Below are positions 2,710 to 27,529 of a stretch of 64,000 bases of DNA, in pieces; position 1 is the stretch's first letter; each line of letters opens with the position of its first letter. The notes below the pieces were generated by a model. It was not told where the DNA came from, did not search any database, and was given only the letters and a program-made list of their open reading frames with translations. Source of the stretch: Bacilli bacterium (lineage in GTDB: Bacteria; Bacillota_I; Bacilli_A; RF39; UBA660). A program made the position numbers and the translations under genes. The stretch lies in NCBI GenBank assembly GCA_017484205.1, contig JAFUTO010000012.1, forward strand, positions 1-64,000, in the 5' to 3' direction.

Positions 2710-4026
2710 ATGGAAAAAATATTTGTTAATGAATTAAAAAATCATATAGATGAGGAAATTACATTTGGAGGATTTGTAGATGCCATAAGAGATAAGAAAT
2801 GGGTTATGTTCGTTATCTTAAAAGATCATACAGGAAGAGTCCAAATGACTATTGAAAAAAGTGAAGAACAAAATCAAAAACTATTAGATATAATGAGTAA
2901 TGTAACTAAAGATAGTACAATAAAAATTAAAGCTAAAGTAGTATCTAATGATGCAGTTAAATTAGGTGGTATTGAACTTATACCAGAATATATAGAAGTT
3001 ACAAGTAAAGCTGAGGAATTACCTTTTGATTATAATAACTTAGAAGGTGTTAATCTAGATACAAGATTAGATTATAGATGGTTAGATATAAGAAATGATA
3101 AGAATATGATGATTCATCTAGTATCTTCAGAAATGGTTAGATATATGAGAGAATACTTATATAATAATGGTTTTACTGAAATACATACACCTAAAATAAT
3201 AGGTGCGGCATCAGAATCAGGTTCAGAAGTATTTGAAGTTAAATATTTTGATAGATCTGCTTATCTAGCTCAGTCACCTCAATTTTATAAACAAATGGCT
3301 TTAGCCGCGGGATTAGATAAAGTATTTGAAGTAGCCCCTTGTTTTAGAGCAGAAAACTCTAATACATCAAGACATGCAACTGAGTTTACATCATTTGATT
3401 TGGAATTCGCATATATAAAAGATTATCATGATGTAATGAATTTAGAAGCTGAAATGATAACTTATGCTTTAACTAAATTAAATGAATCAATGGGTGAAAG
3501 AATAAAAGAGGTATTAGATATAGATATAGTGGTACCAAAACTACCTTTCCCTGAAATGAAACTTAAAGATATCTATAAAGAGTTAGAAGAAAGGTATGAT
3601 TACAAAATAGATGATTCACTTAAAAATGACTTAACTACTGAAGCAGAAAGATTAGTGTATAAATTAGCTAAGGATAAATTTGATAGTGAATTTATGTTTG
3701 TTGTAGATTTCCCTGCTGAAAAAAGAGCATTCTACCATATGAGAGATGAAGAGGGTAGATTACAAGGTTTTGATTTAATTTGGAGAGGTACTGAGATTAC
3801 TACAGGTGCTCAAAGAGAACATAGATATGAAGAAATAGTTAAAAATGCCAAAGAAAAGGGACTAGGTGATGATGTTAAGTTCTATTTAGATTTCTTTAAA
3901 TATGGATGTCCTCCACATGGTGGATTTGCTATAGGTGTAGATAGACTTACAATGTTACTTTTAGATGTTCCTAGTGTTAAAGAAACACAATTTATCTTTA
4001 GGGGACCTACTAGATTAAATCCTTAG
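2710..4026 (+). CDS. aspS: Aspartyl-tRNA synthetase, archaeal-type (short form)
   Basis: This class II synthetase charges Asp onto tRNA-Asp. At 438 residues it matches the archaeal/AspRS2 form. It lacks the roughly 120-residue GAD insertion of standard bacterial AspRS of about 590 residues. Seen in order: an N-terminal OB fold (about 1-100), motif 1 near EIHTPKIIGAASESGSEVF, the loop YLAQSPQFYKQM, motif 2 FRAENSNTSRHATEF, and motif 3 GGFAIGVDRLTMLLL. Short AspRS enzymes can be non-discriminating and also form Asp-tRNA-Asn for GatCAB. In the OB fold the archaeal discriminating enzymes have Gly-Trp-Val-Trp and non-discriminating ones Gly-Trp-Val-His; this protein has Gly-Phe-Val-Asp, so specificity cannot be read off. 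Confidence 0.93.
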   Translation: MEKIFVNELKNHIDEEITFGGFVDAIRDKKWVMFVILKDHTGRVQMTIEKSEEQNQKLLDIMSNVTKDSTIKIKAKVVSNDAVKLGGIELIPEYIEVTSKAEELPFDYNNLEGVNLDTRLDYRWLDIRNDKNMMIHLVSSEMVRYMREYLYNNGFTEIHTPKIIGAASESGSEVFEVKYFDRSAYLAQSPQFYKQMALAAGLDKVFEVAPCFRAENSNTSRHATEFTSFDLEFAYIKDYHDVMNLEAEMITYALTKLNESMGERIKEVLDIDIVVPKLPFPEMKLKDIYKELEERYDYKIDDSLKNDLTTEAERLVYKLAKDKFDSEFMFVVDFPAEKRAFYHMRDEEGRLQGFDLIWRGTEITTGAQREHRYEEIVKNAKEKGLGDDVKFYLDFFKYGCPPHGGFAIGVDRLTMLLLDVPSVKETQFIFRGPTRLNP

Positions 4027-7021: not shown

Positions 7022-7075
7022 AATTTGCTTTTTAATAATTAATCTTATATAATGGTATTAGATAGGAGAGTTGAA

Positions 7076-8578
7076 ATGAAAAATATGAAAAAATTTATAG
7101 GGGTTTTTATATTGGCTTTAGTATTATTCGTACCAAGTGTATTTGCGCTTAATGAAGAAGACTTAATTAAAAATGTTGTACCTAATGGTGAGAGTATAAC
7201 AATAAAAAGCATAAAACCAACTACTTATGAATATGCATATGAACTTATTAGTAATTATGTAGATAATAACTTTGATGTAGAAGGTTATAGAGCTTGGGGT
7301 GATTGTAATCCAGAAGATTTGACAGAATGTTTAGTTCATATTGATTCTGAAAATAATGTTTGGAACTATCAAACAGGTGAGCTTATTAGTGGTTTTGCTA
7401 AAGATTATGAAATTACTGTAACTTATGATGAACCATCTAAAGAACAAGTTACTACAGTAAAACCAATAATCGATGATATTGTTTCTAATATTGAATATGA
7501 TATGGCAGATCCATCTACTTATTATAAAGTAGAAGATTTATCTTTAATCAACTATTTCTTGACTGGTGAAAAATCAGAATTATGGAATCCAGGTGCTGCT
7601 TCTAGAGCTATTAAATTTTCAAATATTAATGAGCTTACTAATGGAGCTAATATTACATTTGGTTTTAATGTAGGATTAGGCGAACAAGGTGAAGATTTAA
7701 TGTATGAATCAGCTGGAACTGGCTTAATCATATATTATGATGGATATAGATATGCTTCTACTCAAGCTATGGTACACTTAAGAAGAGTAATATATATACC
7801 AGAAGATACAGCTGATACAACTGATGCATATATTGCAGCAGCTCAAAAAAGAATTAATGATTATTTAGGTAATGAAAGTGTAAAAGTTACATTGGGTGGA
7901 GCTTTAACTACTTTAGCTGATAGTATTGATGAAAATTCAACTATGTACGGAGCTACTTATGAAGACTTACTAGATGCAACAGTAGATACAGCTGAAACTG
8001 ATGGAAATTACTATAATATTAAAGTTTTAAATAGAACATATAAATTTTATATTATTAAATCAGATGAAATTCCAGAAAATCCAACATATTCAGCTGTTAA
8101 CTTAGATAGTAATGTAGTAATTACATCTGATGATGCAAGTGTGCCTTTAGATACATCTATAACTGTTAAAGAAGTATCTGATAGTAAAATCAATGAAGCT
8201 TTAGGAACTGATGAATTAGTGTCTTATGATATTACTTTATATTCAGATGCTTTAAGTGATAATATTAAAAAATTAGAAAATGGTAAATTCAAAGTAAGTA
8301 TCCCAGTACCAGAAACTTTAAAAGATAAGGATATTAATGTATATTATGTTAATAATGATAATGGGGAAGTAGAGCTTCATAACGCTACAGTCATTGATGG
8401 TATTGCTTCATTTGAGACAGACCACTTTAGTACATATACATTGGCAGCAAATGTTAATCTTGCAGGAGTTGAGTCACCTAATACTATTGATAATATTCAA
8501 GTAAATTTAGTGATAGGTATGATTGCTTTAGCAGGTTTGGCTAGTGCTTCATTATATTTAAATAAACAAAGAGGATAG
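7076..8578 (+). CDS. Secreted wall-anchored surface protein with PNTIDN sorting signal
   Basis: The 500-residue protein has a signal peptide (MKNMKKFIGVFILALVLFVP, cleavage near VFA-LN). Its unrecognised ectodomain includes a C-terminal beta-rich module (about 380-460) ending in DHFSTYTLA. The end is a sorting-like signal: ESPNTIDN, a hydrophobic span, and the basic tail NKQRG. The same tail plan occurs in the proteins ending at 11708 and 27529, and a class B-like sortase lies at 13087. An earlier in-frame ATG at 7052 overlaps a TATAAT box (7048-7053). AGGAG at 7064-7068 points to the ATG at 7076, which I chose. Function is probably adhesion or interaction; this is inference. Confidence 0.85.
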   Translation: MKNMKKFIGVFILALVLFVPSVFALNEEDLIKNVVPNGESITIKSIKPTTYEYAYELISNYVDNNFDVEGYRAWGDCNPEDLTECLVHIDSENNVWNYQTGELISGFAKDYEITVTYDEPSKEQVTTVKPIIDDIVSNIEYDMADPSTYYKVEDLSLINYFLTGEKSELWNPGAASRAIKFSNINELTNGANITFGFNVGLGEQGEDLMYESAGTGLIIYYDGYRYASTQAMVHLRRVIYIPEDTADTTDAYIAAAQKRINDYLGNESVKVTLGGALTTLADSIDENSTMYGATYEDLLDATVDTAETDGNYYNIKVLNRTYKFYIIKSDEIPENPTYSAVNLDSNVVITSDDASVPLDTSITVKEVSDSKINEALGTDELVSYDITLYSDALSDNIKKLENGKFKVSIPVPETLKDKDINVYYVNNDNGEVELHNATVIDGIASFETDHFSTYTLAANVNLAGVESPNTIDNIQVNLVIGMIALAGLASASLYLNKQRG

Positions 8579-9809: not shown

Positions 9810-11708
9810 ATGAAAAAGGGGTATATTTTAATTATTGGTATTTTAGCATTATTACTATACTTTCCGATAGATGTATTTGCAAGTAATGTAATAATATCAC
9901 CACCAGAGGGGGATGACTTTAATCTAGAAGTAGAACTAACTGATAAGGTTAGTGATGTCAAAAGTGATATTGAATCTGTATTGGCATATAAAGTTGATAA
10001 TCAAATTCTTAAATTTGCAGGAGATATCATGGATGATGACAAAACATTAGAAGACTATAATGTTATTGATAGTTCTGTCATTATGCTAGATATTAAAAAT
10101 GTATATAAAAAATATGATATAGGTTCAGTTATATATTTTAATCCATATACTGCAAGTTTATGTACGAATGGTTCTGCAAATTGTTATGCATGGGGTGTAT
10201 ATCAAAACGATAGTAAGTATAGTAATAAAATTAACTTGCTAATGAAAGATAGTATTGGTTCTACACTTTTTGCCAAGCCAGATACAAGAACAATAACTGA
10301 AGGTTGTTTTAAGGGTGAAAAATATTTCTATTTATCTAAAGAAGACTGTGGCACAACAACTGAGTCTAGTGGTGCGACATGGCAAGAAGGTATTAATAAA
10401 GAAATAGTTTTATATGATAACATTGAAGGTATATTAGAATTTTTGGATGCAAAAACAAGTAGTTGGAATAGCAAACTAACATTAACAAAGTCTTATGATG
10501 GTGTTGATTTATCAAGTTATAAAGCTAGACTATTTACTGTAGATGAATTATCAAGCATGATAGGTATGTCTAATAAATATTTACCATTATTTGATGAAGA
10601 AAGACTTGGGGATGTAAATTATCTTAATAATCCAATATATTTGTATTCTTTAAAAACAAGTGGAGATCGTATACAAGCAATTATGCCATTTAAAAGTGTT
10701 ATAATATCTACTACATCACCAACAAATAGTTCAAGTGAAATAAGCCCAATTATAGAAGTAAAAAAAGATTATTTTGGTTTTGCGTTACATGATGTTACAA
10801 TTGATAGTATAGTTAATGGTAGTGTGTCTACTGATGTATCTAAACAATATTATGGTGATTTAGTTGAAATTACTATAACTCCTGATGAGGATTATGAGTT
10901 AGATACAGTTACTGTTACAGATACATTTGGAAATACAATAACTGTGACAAATAATAAGTTTGTAATGCCTGATTCTGATGTAAATATAAGTGTGACATTT
11001 AAACATAAACCTTTAACTGTAACATTTGATACAAATGGTGGAACTGATATTGCAACTCAAAGTGTTGATTATGATAATGTAGTTGAAAAACCAGAAACAC
11101 CAGAAAAAGAAGGATATACTTTTGTCAATTGGTATGATGATAATACTTTTACAAGTATATATGATTTTGAAACTAAAATAAAGTTAGACACAATGTTATA
11201 TGCTAAATGGAATGAAATTTTACCAGTTCAAGGTCCAGAAGAAGATGAAACAAAAGATGAAGAATCACCAATTGAAGAAACACAAAACGAAATAAAACCG
11301 ATTGAATATATATTCTTATCTGGTGGAAATCAAGTTTTAGATATAGATTCAGATGATTTATTAACATTTAGAGTAAATATAGATTTAGATGAATTTTTAG
11401 CTAGTGGTGGTATATATATAGATGGTATATTTATTGATCCTTCAAATTATACCACTGAGAAAGGTAGTACTATAATTACATTCAATCCAGAATTTATTAA
11501 AAATTTAAGTTTAAATCTTCACTCATTAAAAGTAGAAGTAGCAGCAGGAAATACTTCAACTAATTTTACACTTACTAAAGTTGGAACATTACCAGAAAGT
11601 CCTAATACAGTGGATAATGTAAAACTACATATAGTTATATTATCAATAAGTTTGATAGGATTAATTTCTACATCTGTCTATTTTAAAAAGTATTTATTAA
11701 AAGGCTAG
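9810..11708 (+). CDS. Secreted sortase substrate with an N-terminal ubiquitin-like domain and an InlB-type repeat
   Basis: The 632-residue protein has a signal peptide (1-24, cleavage near VFA-SN), then a ubiquitin-like domain at about 26-96. From LEVE at residue 39 it aligns without gaps to ubiquitin Leu15 onward over 58 positions with 22 identities, including FAG (69-71), TLEDYN (79-84) and the VK/I positions of helix 1. An unrecognised region with Cys pairs (about 115-300) follows, then a module near 320-395 with a VNISVTF strand, and a Listeria-Bacteroides (Flg_new/InlB) repeat at about 402-470 with FDTNGG, EGYTFVNWYDD and LYAKW. The end is a sorting signal, PESPNTVDN plus span plus KKYLLKG. 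The ubiquitin GG tail is absent. It is probably wall-anchored by the sortase at 13087. Confidence 0.88.
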   Translation: MKKGYILIIGILALLLYFPIDVFASNVIISPPEGDDFNLEVELTDKVSDVKSDIESVLAYKVDNQILKFAGDIMDDDKTLEDYNVIDSSVIMLDIKNVYKKYDIGSVIYFNPYTASLCTNGSANCYAWGVYQNDSKYSNKINLLMKDSIGSTLFAKPDTRTITEGCFKGEKYFYLSKEDCGTTTESSGATWQEGINKEIVLYDNIEGILEFLDAKTSSWNSKLTLTKSYDGVDLSSYKARLFTVDELSSMIGMSNKYLPLFDEERLGDVNYLNNPIYLYSLKTSGDRIQAIMPFKSVIISTTSPTNSSSEISPIIEVKKDYFGFALHDVTIDSIVNGSVSTDVSKQYYGDLVEITITPDEDYELDTVTVTDTFGNTITVTNNKFVMPDSDVNISVTFKHKPLTVTFDTNGGTDIATQSVDYDNVVEKPETPEKEGYTFVNWYDDNTFTSIYDFETKIKLDTMLYAKWNEILPVQGPEEDETKDEESPIEETQNEIKPIEYIFLSGGNQVLDIDSDDLLTFRVNIDLDEFLASGGIYIDGIFIDPSNYTTEKGSTIITFNPEFIKNLSLNLHSLKVEVAAGNTSTNFTLTKVGTLPESPNTVDNVKLHIVILSISLIGLISTSVYFKKYLLKG

Positions 11709-13076: not shown

Positions 13077-13105
13077 AAAACAAGGATTACCTTGTTTCTT
13101 TTTTT
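13075..13105. terminator. Bidirectional terminator between TatD and sortase genes
   Basis: An AACAAGG / CCTTGTT hairpin has A residues on the left and T residues on the right. Confidence 0.7.
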
Positions 13106-13911
13106 ATTAATTTAGCATGAATGACAACTTTATCAGTTTGACCATGGCAAGTAGATAGGGTAAGTATATAATCATCAGGACTAACTGTTGTATTAAAGTT
13201 GTATTGTGATCTATTAATTAACATATTAGTAAAATTTTTAAAATCATCATTAGATGAAAAACTAACTCTTAAGTAATCATTAGTAGTAGGAATTCTATAT
13301 ACACTGAATACTTGCCATAAAGTATTTTCAGATTCTGTAGATAATTTTATAACAAAATTGTTAGGATTATTTAACCAACCATTTGTAAGAATATCTCTAA
13401 TACTTCCAAACATTGTTCTATCAAGTCTTCCATGACCATATAAGATAGTATTTTTATCAAAAGTTTTAATATTATTTCTATAATCCATAAATATCCATCC
13501 AGCATAGTTACCGCTTTTATCAAATGAATGAGTTAAATAATAACTATTATCAGTTGTTTTGACAAAGGGATAATTTACATTTGTACCATTAACTTGAATC
13601 CATCCAGCTGTATCACTATTGATAGCTTTTAATTCATTAAAATTTACATTGATTAAATTCATTTTCATATAATCATAATAGAAACTTGGTAACTGATATC
13701 CTTCTTCTTCAACAGGTTCCTCTTGTATTTCTTCAGGAGTCTCTACCTCATCTATTTCAGCAATAGTTGATAACCATTCTATTTGATCGGCTGTCTTTTT
13801 GTTATCTTTATACCAAATTACAATATTTACTATACTAATTATTAAACCAATTAGACATATTAAAATAATTATCCAAGCAATGATTTTTCTTTTGCTTAAT
13901 ACACGTTTCAT
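13087..13911 (-). CDS. Class B-like sortase
   Basis: Sortases are membrane transpeptidases that join surface proteins to peptidoglycan. The 274-residue protein has a membrane span (about 11-33), an acidic linker, and the sortase barrel with the catalytic His in ILYGHGRLDRTMFGSI and Cys255 in TLSTCHG. The TLSTC box and length point to class B. Where SrtB has its catalytic Arg (pattern R-[IVF]-V-V-x-A-K) this protein has Lys261 (DKVVIHAKL). It is the only sortase in the window. Three proteins here end in PNT[IVL]DN signals that are its likely substrates (inference). Confidence 0.9.
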   Translation of the reverse strand: MKRVLSKRKIIAWIIILICLIGLIISIVNIVIWYKDNKKTADQIEWLSTIAEIDEVETPEEIQEEPVEEEGYQLPSFYYDYMKMNLINVNFNELKAINSDTAGWIQVNGTNVNYPFVKTTDNSYYLTHSFDKSGNYAGWIFMDYRNNIKTFDKNTILYGHGRLDRTMFGSIRDILTNGWLNNPNNFVIKLSTESENTLWQVFSVYRIPTTNDYLRVSFSSNDDFKNFTNMLINRSQYNFNTTVSPDDYILTLSTCHGQTDKVVIHAKLIKKETR

Positions 13912-26039: not shown

Positions 26040-26101
26040 ATATATATAGATATTAATTATGGATAAGGATATAATATATTTGTATATTAGGAGGAAAGAA
26101 A

Positions 26102-27529
26102 ATGAAAAAGAATTTTAAATTATTTATAACTATTTTAGTTGCTTTAATAGTTATACCAGGTGTATCTGCCAAAGAAATTACAAGTGTAGAAATCAATAAT
26201 GTATTTACTGACTTGGAAATCGGCATGACAGAGAAGGAAGCATTCAAAGGAACAGTAACATCAGAAGATTATAAGAAAGAATATGAAAGATGGGGTTTTG
26301 AAGATCTTTCAGGTTATGGTATTGATTCCACAGGTGGTGGATATGTATCAATGGATAAATATCTAGAAAATGGACTTGAAGGAGGTATGTATTATTATTC
26401 AGTAGGTTTTAGAGCTTTAAATGGTAATACATTCGCTAAAAATGTAATATTAAAAATTAATGGAAAAACATACGATACTAAAATGTCATATTGTACTAAA
26501 AATGTTGAAACAGGTGAAGAATCAACTGATTGTATATCTTTCACTAATATTTTTACAAAAGAAGTGTTAGGATATGGTGAAATAGGAGAAGTTAATTATT
26601 CTACTGAAATATTTATTTATGATGAAAACACAGATAAATATTATTTATATGATGGAACTGATACTTTAGTAGAAATTGTTGGATTTGGAGATTCTAATGA
26701 TAATTTAATCGATTATGAAGATTTAGAAGAATTATCTACTAAAGATATAAAAAATGGTACTGCATGGTTAAAAAAATATGCTGATGTCATTGATGTAGAA
26801 GTATATTTAGACGAAGTAGAGGATGACAATGGAATTAGTTATGTTGTAAAAGGAGAAGGTACAATAAAAAAATATGTAGTACAAGCAGATGACACAAAAT
26901 CAGAAACTGATAAAGCTGCTGCTAAAGAAGTATCAAAACTAATTACTTTAGCTACAAATGGTGAAGAAGTAGAAGGTATATCTGAAACTTTGATAGATGC
27001 TATTAATGACGCTATTGCTAATGATAAAGAGGTAACTGCAGAAGTAGCAAGTGATGCTGTAGAAGAAAGTAAAGTATCAGATACTGTAAAAGAAAAAGTT
27101 ACTGAAGAAATTAAAAATAATGATTTAGTTAAAGGAGCTAGTGTATTAGGATATTTCGATATCAACTTAGAAATTAAAATAGATGGTGTAACACAAGAGG
27201 ATACAGTACATAATTTAACAAATGAAATTGAAGTATCTGTAGATGTAAAAGATTTAGTATCTAAACTAGAACCAGTAGCTAAAGGAATGTTAAGAGAATA
27301 TAAAGTAATAAGAATCCACAATAATGAAAGTGATGTATTAGATGCAGATTATAATGAAAACACAGGAATGTTGACATTTAAAACAGATAGATTTTCAGAT
27401 TATATAGTAACAACAAATGTAATAGAAGCACCAAATACATTAGATAATACAACTATATATTTTGCGTTAGCTATGATATCAGTAGTTGGAATGGTATTAA
27501 GTGCTTTATATTTAAGAAAAGAAGCATAA
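26102..27529 (+). CDS. LytTR-controlled secreted surface protein with APNTLDN sorting signal
   Basis: The 475-residue acidic protein has a signal peptide (1-23, cleavage near VSA-KE), a unique N-terminal half with Tyr-rich strands and two Cys residues, and a helical acidic segment (about 260-345). A C-terminal beta module (about 345-435) ends in DRFSDYIVTTN, similar to the module of the protein at 7076. It finishes with IEAPNTLDN, a hydrophobic span and RKEA. It has a strong AGGAGG site and a LytTR operator in front. It is probably anchored by the sortase at 13087. The biological role is unknown; adhesion or signal display is speculation. Confidence 0.87.
   Translation: MKKNFKLFITILVALIVIPGVSAKEITSVEINNVFTDLEIGMTEKEAFKGTVTSEDYKKEYERWGFEDLSGYGIDSTGGGYVSMDKYLENGLEGGMYYYSVGFRALNGNTFAKNVILKINGKTYDTKMSYCTKNVETGEESTDCISFTNIFTKEVLGYGEIGEVNYSTEIFIYDENTDKYYLYDGTDTLVEIVGFGDSNDNLIDYEDLEELSTKDIKNGTAWLKKYADVIDVEVYLDEVEDDNGISYVVKGEGTIKKYVVQADDTKSETDKAAAKEVSKLITLATNGEEVEGISETLIDAINDAIANDKEVTAEVASDAVEESKVSDTVKEKVTEEIKNNDLVKGASVLGYFDINLEIKIDGVTQEDTVHNLTNEIEVSVDVKDLVSKLEPVAKGMLREYKVIRIHNNESDVLDADYNENTGMLTFKTDRFSDYIVTTNVIEAPNTLDNTTIYFALAMISVVGMVLSALYLRKEA

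What the first reader, a model, noticed from the sequence alone, without database searches (positions are those of the whole stretch)
9882..10097. A secreted, probably wall-anchored protein carries a clear ubiquitin-like domain
Residues 39-96 align to human ubiquitin Leu15 onward without a gap, with 22 of 58 identities by hand count. These include LEVE, the VK/I helix pattern, L-x-FAG, TL-x-DYN and a final hydrophobic strand. The domain follows a signal peptide and precedes an InlB-type repeat and a sorting signal, so it should be displayed outside the cell. It lacks the GG tail, so conjugation is unlikely. Mimicry of host ubiquitin-fold ligands, or use as a stable adhesin module, is possible.
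Basis: partly seen in the sequence, partly recalled or inferred. Interest (0 to 1): 0.76.

Follow-up and report, generated by a model that had tools for sequence, protein, structure and literature searches.

The report
Wall-anchored bacterial protein with ubiquitin head
An uncultured, small-genome Bacillota bacterium makes a protein predicted to sit on its cell wall with a ubiquitin-like domain at its outer end, a strongly changed member of a wide but little-noticed set of bacterial proteins that export eukaryote-type ubiquitin.

Summary
AlphaFold2 gives a confident beta-grasp (pLDDT 90.6). The best solved-structure match is BfUbb, the secreted Bacteroides fragilis ubiquitin that kills rival strains. 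A class B sortase gene lies 1.4 kb downstream. Same-family relatives carry near-canonical ubiquitin directly after the signal peptide, several beside a homologous sortase gene. Across 84,980 prokaryote species genomes at least 240 stretches encode ubiquitin relatives. Of the best 80, 72 have a signal peptide and 58 a plausible cleavage site immediately before ubiquitin residue 1. Anchors vary widely; synonymous sites are saturated while the protein is conserved. The window copy is the outlier: buried core kept (14/14), Ile44 face lost (1/9 kept), lysines lost (1/7 kept), no GG tail. Conjugation is excluded and mimicry of host ubiquitin through its usual face is unlikely for this protein. Most likely it is a repurposed ubiquitin fold used as an exposed binding head, partner unknown. 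New variant of a known kind (BfUbb-like exported ubiquitin).

The parts
9810..11708 (+). Gene for the 632-aa surface protein (P0001)
   Evidence: ORF; translation; Pfam
9810..9881 (+). Signal peptide, aa 1-24, MKKGYILIIGILALLLYFPIDVFA; V-F-A before S25 (predicted cleavage), so mature residue 1 aligns with ubiquitin residue 1
   Evidence: sequence; aligned with relatives whose signal peptide ends directly before ubiquitin Met1
9882..10097 (+). Ubiquitin-like domain, aa 25-96
   Evidence: PF00240; AlphaFold2 pLDDT 90.6; Foldseek top hit BfUbb 8hm1
10098..10790 (+). Middle region, aa 97-327, no assignable domain
   Evidence: no Pfam match; no significant PDB sequence match; single-sequence AlphaFold2 uninformative, pLDDT 33.6
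10791..11009 (+). Divergent InlB B-repeat (Flg_new_2, PF18998), aa 328-400
   Evidence: 45.5 bits
11016..11207 (+). Listeria-Bacteroides repeat (Flg_new, PF09479), aa 403-466
   Evidence: 69.2 bits
11598..11705 (+). Cell-wall sorting-type signal: SPNTVD + hydrophobic segment + basic tail (KKYLLKG)
   Evidence: same tail type in two other window ORFs and in relatives (NPQTSD, NPNTLD, NPKTFD)
13087..13911 (-). Class B sortase gene, probable anchoring enzyme; homologues lie beside exported-ubiquitin genes in relatives
   Evidence: TIGR03064 168.4 bits, cut-off 153.75; 69% identical to the sortase beside the ubiquitin gene in L018; linkage

Best explanation
The gene encodes an exported protein, probably attached to the cell wall by the neighbouring class B sortase. 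After signal-peptide removal its free N-terminal end is a ubiquitin fold; the InlB-type repeats act as a stalk and the SPNTVD tail as the anchor. The domain derives from eukaryote-type ubiquitin that bacteria fused behind signal peptides and have kept on their surfaces. Here the stable core was retained while the conjugation tail, the lysines and the canonical Ile44 binding face were lost, so it is neither a modifier nor a faithful ubiquitin mimic. It most likely works as a compact, protease-resistant binding head with a remodelled acidic surface, contacting a host or neighbour-cell partner that is not identified. Shown by computation: domain identity, predicted fold, signal peptide, repeats, sorting-type tail, sortase linkage, architecture shared with relatives, core-versus-face pattern. 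Inferred: actual anchoring, descent from exported ubiquitins, and the binding role. Rough step likelihoods: fold 0.98, export 0.95, sortase B anchoring 0.75, descent from exported ubiquitins 0.85, binding head 0.5.
For: PF00240 match; confident beta-grasp model closest to BfUbb. Same layout of signal peptide, ubiquitin, InlB-type or other repeats and NPxTxD-type tail in same-family genomes, with ubiquitin starting right after the signal peptide. Class B sortase in the window and beside the ubiquitin gene in L016, L018, L084 and homologues in L113, L114, L118. Exported ubiquitins in 72 of the 80 best of 240 loci, joined to autotransporter, SLH, IPTL-CTERM, dockerin, T9SS and sortase-type anchors. 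Strong purifying selection on the set: median pS 0.87, pN 0.12. In the window copy, core hydrophobic 14/14, Ile44 face 1/9, lysines 1/7, Fisher p 2e-5; same-family L008 and L009 show similar loss of the face.
Against: No binding partner, expression or localisation data. The window domain is too divergent for a tree to place (end branch about 7; AU tests do not separate alternatives), so descent rests on shared architecture and fold. The middle region is unassigned. Loss of the face could reflect relaxed constraint rather than a new binding surface; no close orthologue was found to test selection on this copy.
Confidence: 0.6

Rival explanations
1. Surface-displayed antibacterial module that works like BfUbb: the ubiquitin fold binds an essential extracytoplasmic protein of a competing strain (for BfUbb apparently a peptidyl-prolyl isomerase) and inhibits it, here in a contact-dependent, wall-attached form.
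For: BfUbb, the only characterised exported bacterial ubiquitin I found, mediates intraspecies killing (PMC5705921); a PPIase-BfUbb complex is solved (8hm3, second Foldseek hit); shared hallmarks are the signal peptide ending at ubiquitin residue 1 and the missing GG; patchy presence (9 of 243 family genomes over the cut-off).
Against: The window protein is a large, probably anchored protein, not a free 76-aa toxin; no recurrent immunity-like neighbour was seen; the BfUbb interface was not compared because its sequence was not retrieved.
Confidence: 0.2
2. Stable folded cap or display scaffold: the ubiquitin fold was kept only because it folds fast and resists proteases, protecting the N terminus and aiding export; it binds nothing specific.
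For: In the window copy only the core is conserved; in the wider set ubiquitin is N-terminal but is fused to unrelated partners.
Against: Most exported ubiquitins conserve exposed positions too (L8 97%, I44 94%, H68 96%, K63 96%, with selection bias), more than a mere cap needs.
Confidence: 0.2
3. Mimicry of host ubiquitin: the displayed domain engages host ubiquitin-binding proteins, ubiquitin receptors or deubiquitinases.
For: Several relatives are near-identical to human ubiquitin (for example Dyella L033, 75/76); human extracellular ubiquitin has reported, disputed, receptor activity (PMC10892293).
Against: The window copy lacks the Ile44 face, the lysines and the tail; exported ubiquitins also occur in bacteria whose names and sample sources point to soil or water and in methanogen MAGs, where no animal host is evident.
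Confidence: 0.07
4. Artefact: eukaryotic contamination or a chance resemblance.
For: Ubiquitin is a classic eukaryotic marker; a few of the 80 loci lack a signal peptide (L019, L055, L074) and may be contaminants.
Against: Bacterial signal peptide, InlB repeats, sorting tail and sortase on a 64.7-kb bacterial contig; same architecture in several independent same-family genomes; many named isolate genomes carry exported copies.
Confidence: 0.01

Closest known systems
BfUbb, secreted ubiquitin of Bacteroides fragilis (PMC3352274, PMC5705921; PDB 8hm1, 8hm3)
   Same: Signal peptide whose cleavage leaves a mature protein aligned with ubiquitin residue 1; no GG tail; best structural match of the window domain (37% identity, TM 0.87/0.90).
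   Different: BfUbb is a free 76-aa secreted antibacterial protein, 63% identical to human ubiquitin, with a C-terminal Cys. The window domain is 32% identical to human ubiquitin (23/72), part of a 632-aa protein with a sorting tail, with the Ile44 face lost.
Eukaryotic ubiquitin and conjugating ubiquitin-like modifiers
   Same: Fold, core residues, LEVE, LxFAG and TLxDYN motifs.
   Different: No GG tail, one of seven lysines, altered face, predicted extracellular location.
Sortase-anchored InlB-repeat surface proteins of Bacillota
   Same: Signal peptide, Flg_new and Flg_new_2 repeats, sorting-type tail, class B sortase nearby.
   Different: Ubiquitin fold as the N-terminal head in place of leucine-rich repeats or other known heads; NPxTxD-like tails rather than LPXTG.
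Other exported bacterial ubiquitins found here (e.g. Ruminococcus albus 7 pRUMAL01 'ubiquitin family protein', Dyella L033, Pedobacter L061/L123)
   Same: N-terminal ubiquitin directly after, or close to, the signal peptide; usually no GG.
   Different: The 72 exported copies of the best-80 list are 70-99% identical to human ubiquitin and mostly keep the Ile44 face; the window copy is far more diverged.

Membership tests
Ubiquitin family (PF00240) | Profile score over the curated cut-off | tested here: met
   47.8 bits against 25.4; 51.8 bits
Ubiquitin family (PF00240) | Beta-grasp ubiquitin fold | tested here: met
   AlphaFold2 pLDDT 90.6; Foldseek TM 0.84-0.89 to ubiquitins; predicted, not solved
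Conjugatable ubiquitin (modifier) | C-terminal di-glycine, exposed or exposed by processing | tested here: not met
   residues at ubiquitin positions 71-76 are IKNVYK, no GG
Conjugatable ubiquitin (modifier) | Ile44 face (L8, I44, H68, V70) and chain-forming lysines | tested here: not met
   P, K, M, D at these sites; 1 of 7 lysines
Bacterial ubiquitin-conjugation systems (Bil type) | Linked or encoded E1, E2 and JAB-type peptidase | tested here: inconclusive
   Two ThiF-fold proteins in the genome on other contigs (C13, C18), none near the gene; E2 and JAB not searched
BfUbb-type exported ubiquitin | Signal peptide ending directly before ubiquitin residue 1 | tested here: met
   V-F-A|S25 aligned to Met1; cleavage predicted from sequence, not measured; PMC5705921 describes the same for BfUbb
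BfUbb-type exported ubiquitin | Free 76-aa mature protein | tested here: not met
   632-aa multi-domain protein
BfUbb-type exported ubiquitin | Antibacterial activity / PPIase binding | not testable with these tools
   needs purified protein and sensitive strains
Class B sortase substrate | C-terminal motif + hydrophobic segment + basic tail | tested here: met
   SPNTVD tail; NPxTxD in relatives
Class B sortase substrate | Class B sortase encoded near it | tested here: met
   TIGR03064 168.4 bits; linkage in relatives
Class B sortase substrate | Covalent wall attachment | not testable with these tools
   needs cell-wall fractionation

The most novel reading that the evidence does not exclude
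Exported ubiquitin is a widespread, long-maintained class of prokaryotic surface module, present in many bacterial phyla and some archaeal MAGs, with a common extracellular role in contacts or competition between cells. BfUbb would be its only characterised member, and the window protein a lineage that has evolved a new specificity on the same fold.
Probability: 0.35. Interest if true: 0.85.

Novelty: new variant of a known kind. Interest (0 to 1): 0.62.

Why it matters
Ubiquitin is taught as a eukaryotic intracellular modifier, and the B. fragilis papers describe secreted bacterial ubiquitin as unique (2011) or found in a few bacteria (2017). The scan here finds at least 240 stretches encoding ubiquitin relatives in prokaryote species genomes, mostly exported among the best 80, fused to many kinds of surface anchor, and conserved at the protein level despite saturated synonymous sites. 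That makes the question 'what is extracellular ubiquitin for in bacteria?' directly testable in cultured species such as Ruminococcus albus, Dyella, Pedobacter cryoconitis and Cohnella. It also warns that current annotation (for example GO 'protein ubiquitination' on the R. albus protein) can mislead. The window protein is a natural case in which the fold survives without its canonical binding face.

Tried and rejected
Phylogenetic placement of the window domain: unresolved; it joins NEDD8 by long-branch attraction, and without NEDD8 the AU tests accept several positions (p 0.45-0.57) while grouping it with eukaryotic ubiquitins gives p 0.115, also not rejected. Structure of the middle region: single-sequence AlphaFold2 gave pLDDT 33.6 and was discarded; no Pfam match or significant PDB match; apparent similarity to the L006 region was not significant. 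Comparison with a same-genus genome: only one is held, it lacks the gene and is too divergent. Recurrent neighbours: apart from the class B sortase and clusters mostly confined to one host group, nothing that stood out as a partner or immunity gene, though the clusters were not annotated one by one. Mobile carriage: none in phages, two plasmid records, ten viral-collection contigs of mixed type. Contamination was considered and rejected for this locus. No paper describing exported ubiquitins beyond BfUbb was found in the searches made; this is not proof of absence, since most subscription papers are not held.

Full report
Observation. The ORF at 9810-11708 (+) encodes 632 aa. Residues 34-95 match Pfam ubiquitin at 47.8 bits, nearly twice the cut-off, and this is the only PF00240 match in the 1.27-Mb genome. 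AlphaFold2, on the window domain with 23 relatives, gives pLDDT 90.6 and the ubiquitin order of strands and helix. Foldseek ranks BfUbb (8hm1) first and the PPIase-BfUbb complex (8hm3) second among PDB entries, followed by many ubiquitins. The alignment given to the predictor was rich in ubiquitins, so the model is not wholly independent of the sequence match.

Rest of the protein. A 24-residue signal peptide precedes the domain; by the alignment, the predicted mature residue 1 corresponds to ubiquitin residue 1. After an unassigned region of about 230 aa come a divergent InlB repeat and a Listeria-Bacteroides repeat, then SPNTVD, a hydrophobic stretch and a basic tail. Two other ORFs in the window end in the same type of tail. 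The genome has three sortases. One is a class B enzyme over the NCBIfam cut-off, 1.4 kb downstream on the other strand.

Relatives in the same taxonomic family. Of 243 genomes, 9 (the window's own included) have PF00240 over the cut-off. Most of their proteins are signal peptide, ubiquitin beginning at Met1 directly after the signal peptide, variable middle parts or repeats, then an NPxTxD-type tail. Several of these ubiquitins are about 70-85% identical to human over 72 residues, others are diverged. Genes homologous to the window sortase (62-72% identical) lie beside the ubiquitin gene in L016 and L018 and in L113, L114 and L118; L084 (Clostridium) has a 40% identical class B sortase next to its ubiquitin gene. 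None was found near L115, L116, L117 (short contig), L119 or L120. With about three sortases in a genome of about 1.1 Mb, such linkage in about half the loci is far above chance; this is a rough estimate, not a formal test.

Wider distribution. The one scan of 84,980 species genomes found 240 stretches encoding a relative; the best 80 were read. Of these, 72 have an upstream hydrophobic signal segment and 58 also have small residues at -3 and -1, so that ubiquitin Met1 is the predicted first mature residue (a simple rule, not SignalP). Many Ruminococcus-type copies instead have a spacer of about 10 residues or more. They come from many bacterial phyla, many of them isolates (Conexibacter, Dyella, Leeia, Pedobacter, Cohnella, Paenibacillus, Denitrificimonas, Brevundimonas, Chromatocurvus, Ohessyouella), and from Methanothrix-group MAGs. 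Partner domains include autotransporters, SLH, dockerin, IPTL-CTERM, SdrD-B, fn3 and T9SS tails; among the families listed, no NCBIfam model names the class. Dyella sp. OK004 encodes a signal peptide followed by a protein 75/76 identical to human ubiquitin with intact GG. Pedobacter cryoconitis has four such genes in tandem. R. albus 7 carries one on plasmid pRUMAL01. Over 2080 pairs, synonymous sites are saturated (median pS 0.87) while median pN is 0.12, and pairs that are not saturated have a median dN/dS near 0.12. These are therefore long-maintained genes, not recent contamination. Differences in base composition between hosts add to pS.

Which features are kept. Among the 72 exported copies, L8, I44, H68 and the lysines K27, K29, K33 and K63 are each at 94% or more, V70 at 86%, but G75 is at 40% and G76 at 17%. 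Two caveats: these are the 80 copies most like the query, and the search patterns lie at ubiquitin residues 15-23 and 51-59, so conservation there is inflated. The contrast between face and tail lies outside those stretches. The window copy is different: 14/14 core positions hydrophobic, 1/9 face positions kept, 1/7 lysines, net charge -12. Same-family L008 and L009 show a similar loss of the face. The lists of core and face positions are textbook knowledge of ubiquitin, not computed here.

Mechanism. Conjugation is excluded by the missing tail. Mimicry of host ubiquitin through the usual face is unlikely for this copy. The simplest reading is an exposed, compact binding head on a sortase-anchored stalk with a remodelled surface; the partner is unknown. 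The main rivals are a BfUbb-like antibacterial function, for which there is a precedent of secretion and killing activity (PMC5705921) and a solved PPIase complex, and a purely structural cap.

Comparison with the literature. PMC3352274 (2011) calls BfUbb unique among bacteria; PMC5705921 (2017) calls B. fragilis one of a few bacteria encoding a eukaryotic-like ubiquitin and notes that the cleavage site sits exactly at ubiquitin residue 1. Later work on BfUbb (Jiang et al., Nature Microbiology) is cited in PMC12853789; I did not read it. The pattern found here generalises that hallmark. The window protein is a diverged, probably anchored variant, not a member of the free-toxin type.

Limits. 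The window domain cannot be placed in a tree, so its descent from exported ubiquitins rests on shared architecture and sortase linkage. Signal peptides and sorting signals were judged by simple rules. No function has been measured.

Noticed in passing
window 7052-8578 (+) and 26075-27529 (+): Two further ORFs with the same kind of C-terminal sorting-type tail (SPNTID, APNTLD + hydrophobic segment + basic end), probably co-anchored surface proteins.
   Followed up: partly
L033:4998-5225: Dyella sp. OK004 (isolate) encodes a signal peptide fused to a ubiquitin 75/76 identical to human, with intact GG and nothing after it: a free, exported, potentially conjugatable ubiquitin.
   Followed up: partly
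L123:4529-5931: Pedobacter cryoconitis carries four tandem genes for exported ubiquitins of about 100 aa precursor length, diverged from each other.
   Followed up: partly
L126:3923-4663: Ruminococcus albus 7 plasmid pRUMAL01 has an annotated 'ubiquitin family protein' given GO terms for protein ubiquitination, which its context does not support.
   Followed up: partly
L044, L072, L082, L094, L004, L006, L014: A distinct ubiquitin subtype (KHITLEVEPTDRIEDVK ... GNTLQDYSIQKDSTLHL) is shared by Bacilli, Clostridia and Alphaproteobacteria MAGs (support 100/99), suggesting transfer between bacteria.
   Followed up: no
L100, around 3001-3177: A viral-collection contig has ubiquitin at the N terminus of a 249-aa ORF without a signal peptide; possibly a virus-encoded ubiquitin fusion.
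   Followed up: no
L043, L053, L090: Methanothrix-group archaeal MAG contigs carry ubiquitin copies, two of them (L043, L053) with signal peptides; binning error not excluded.
   Followed up: no
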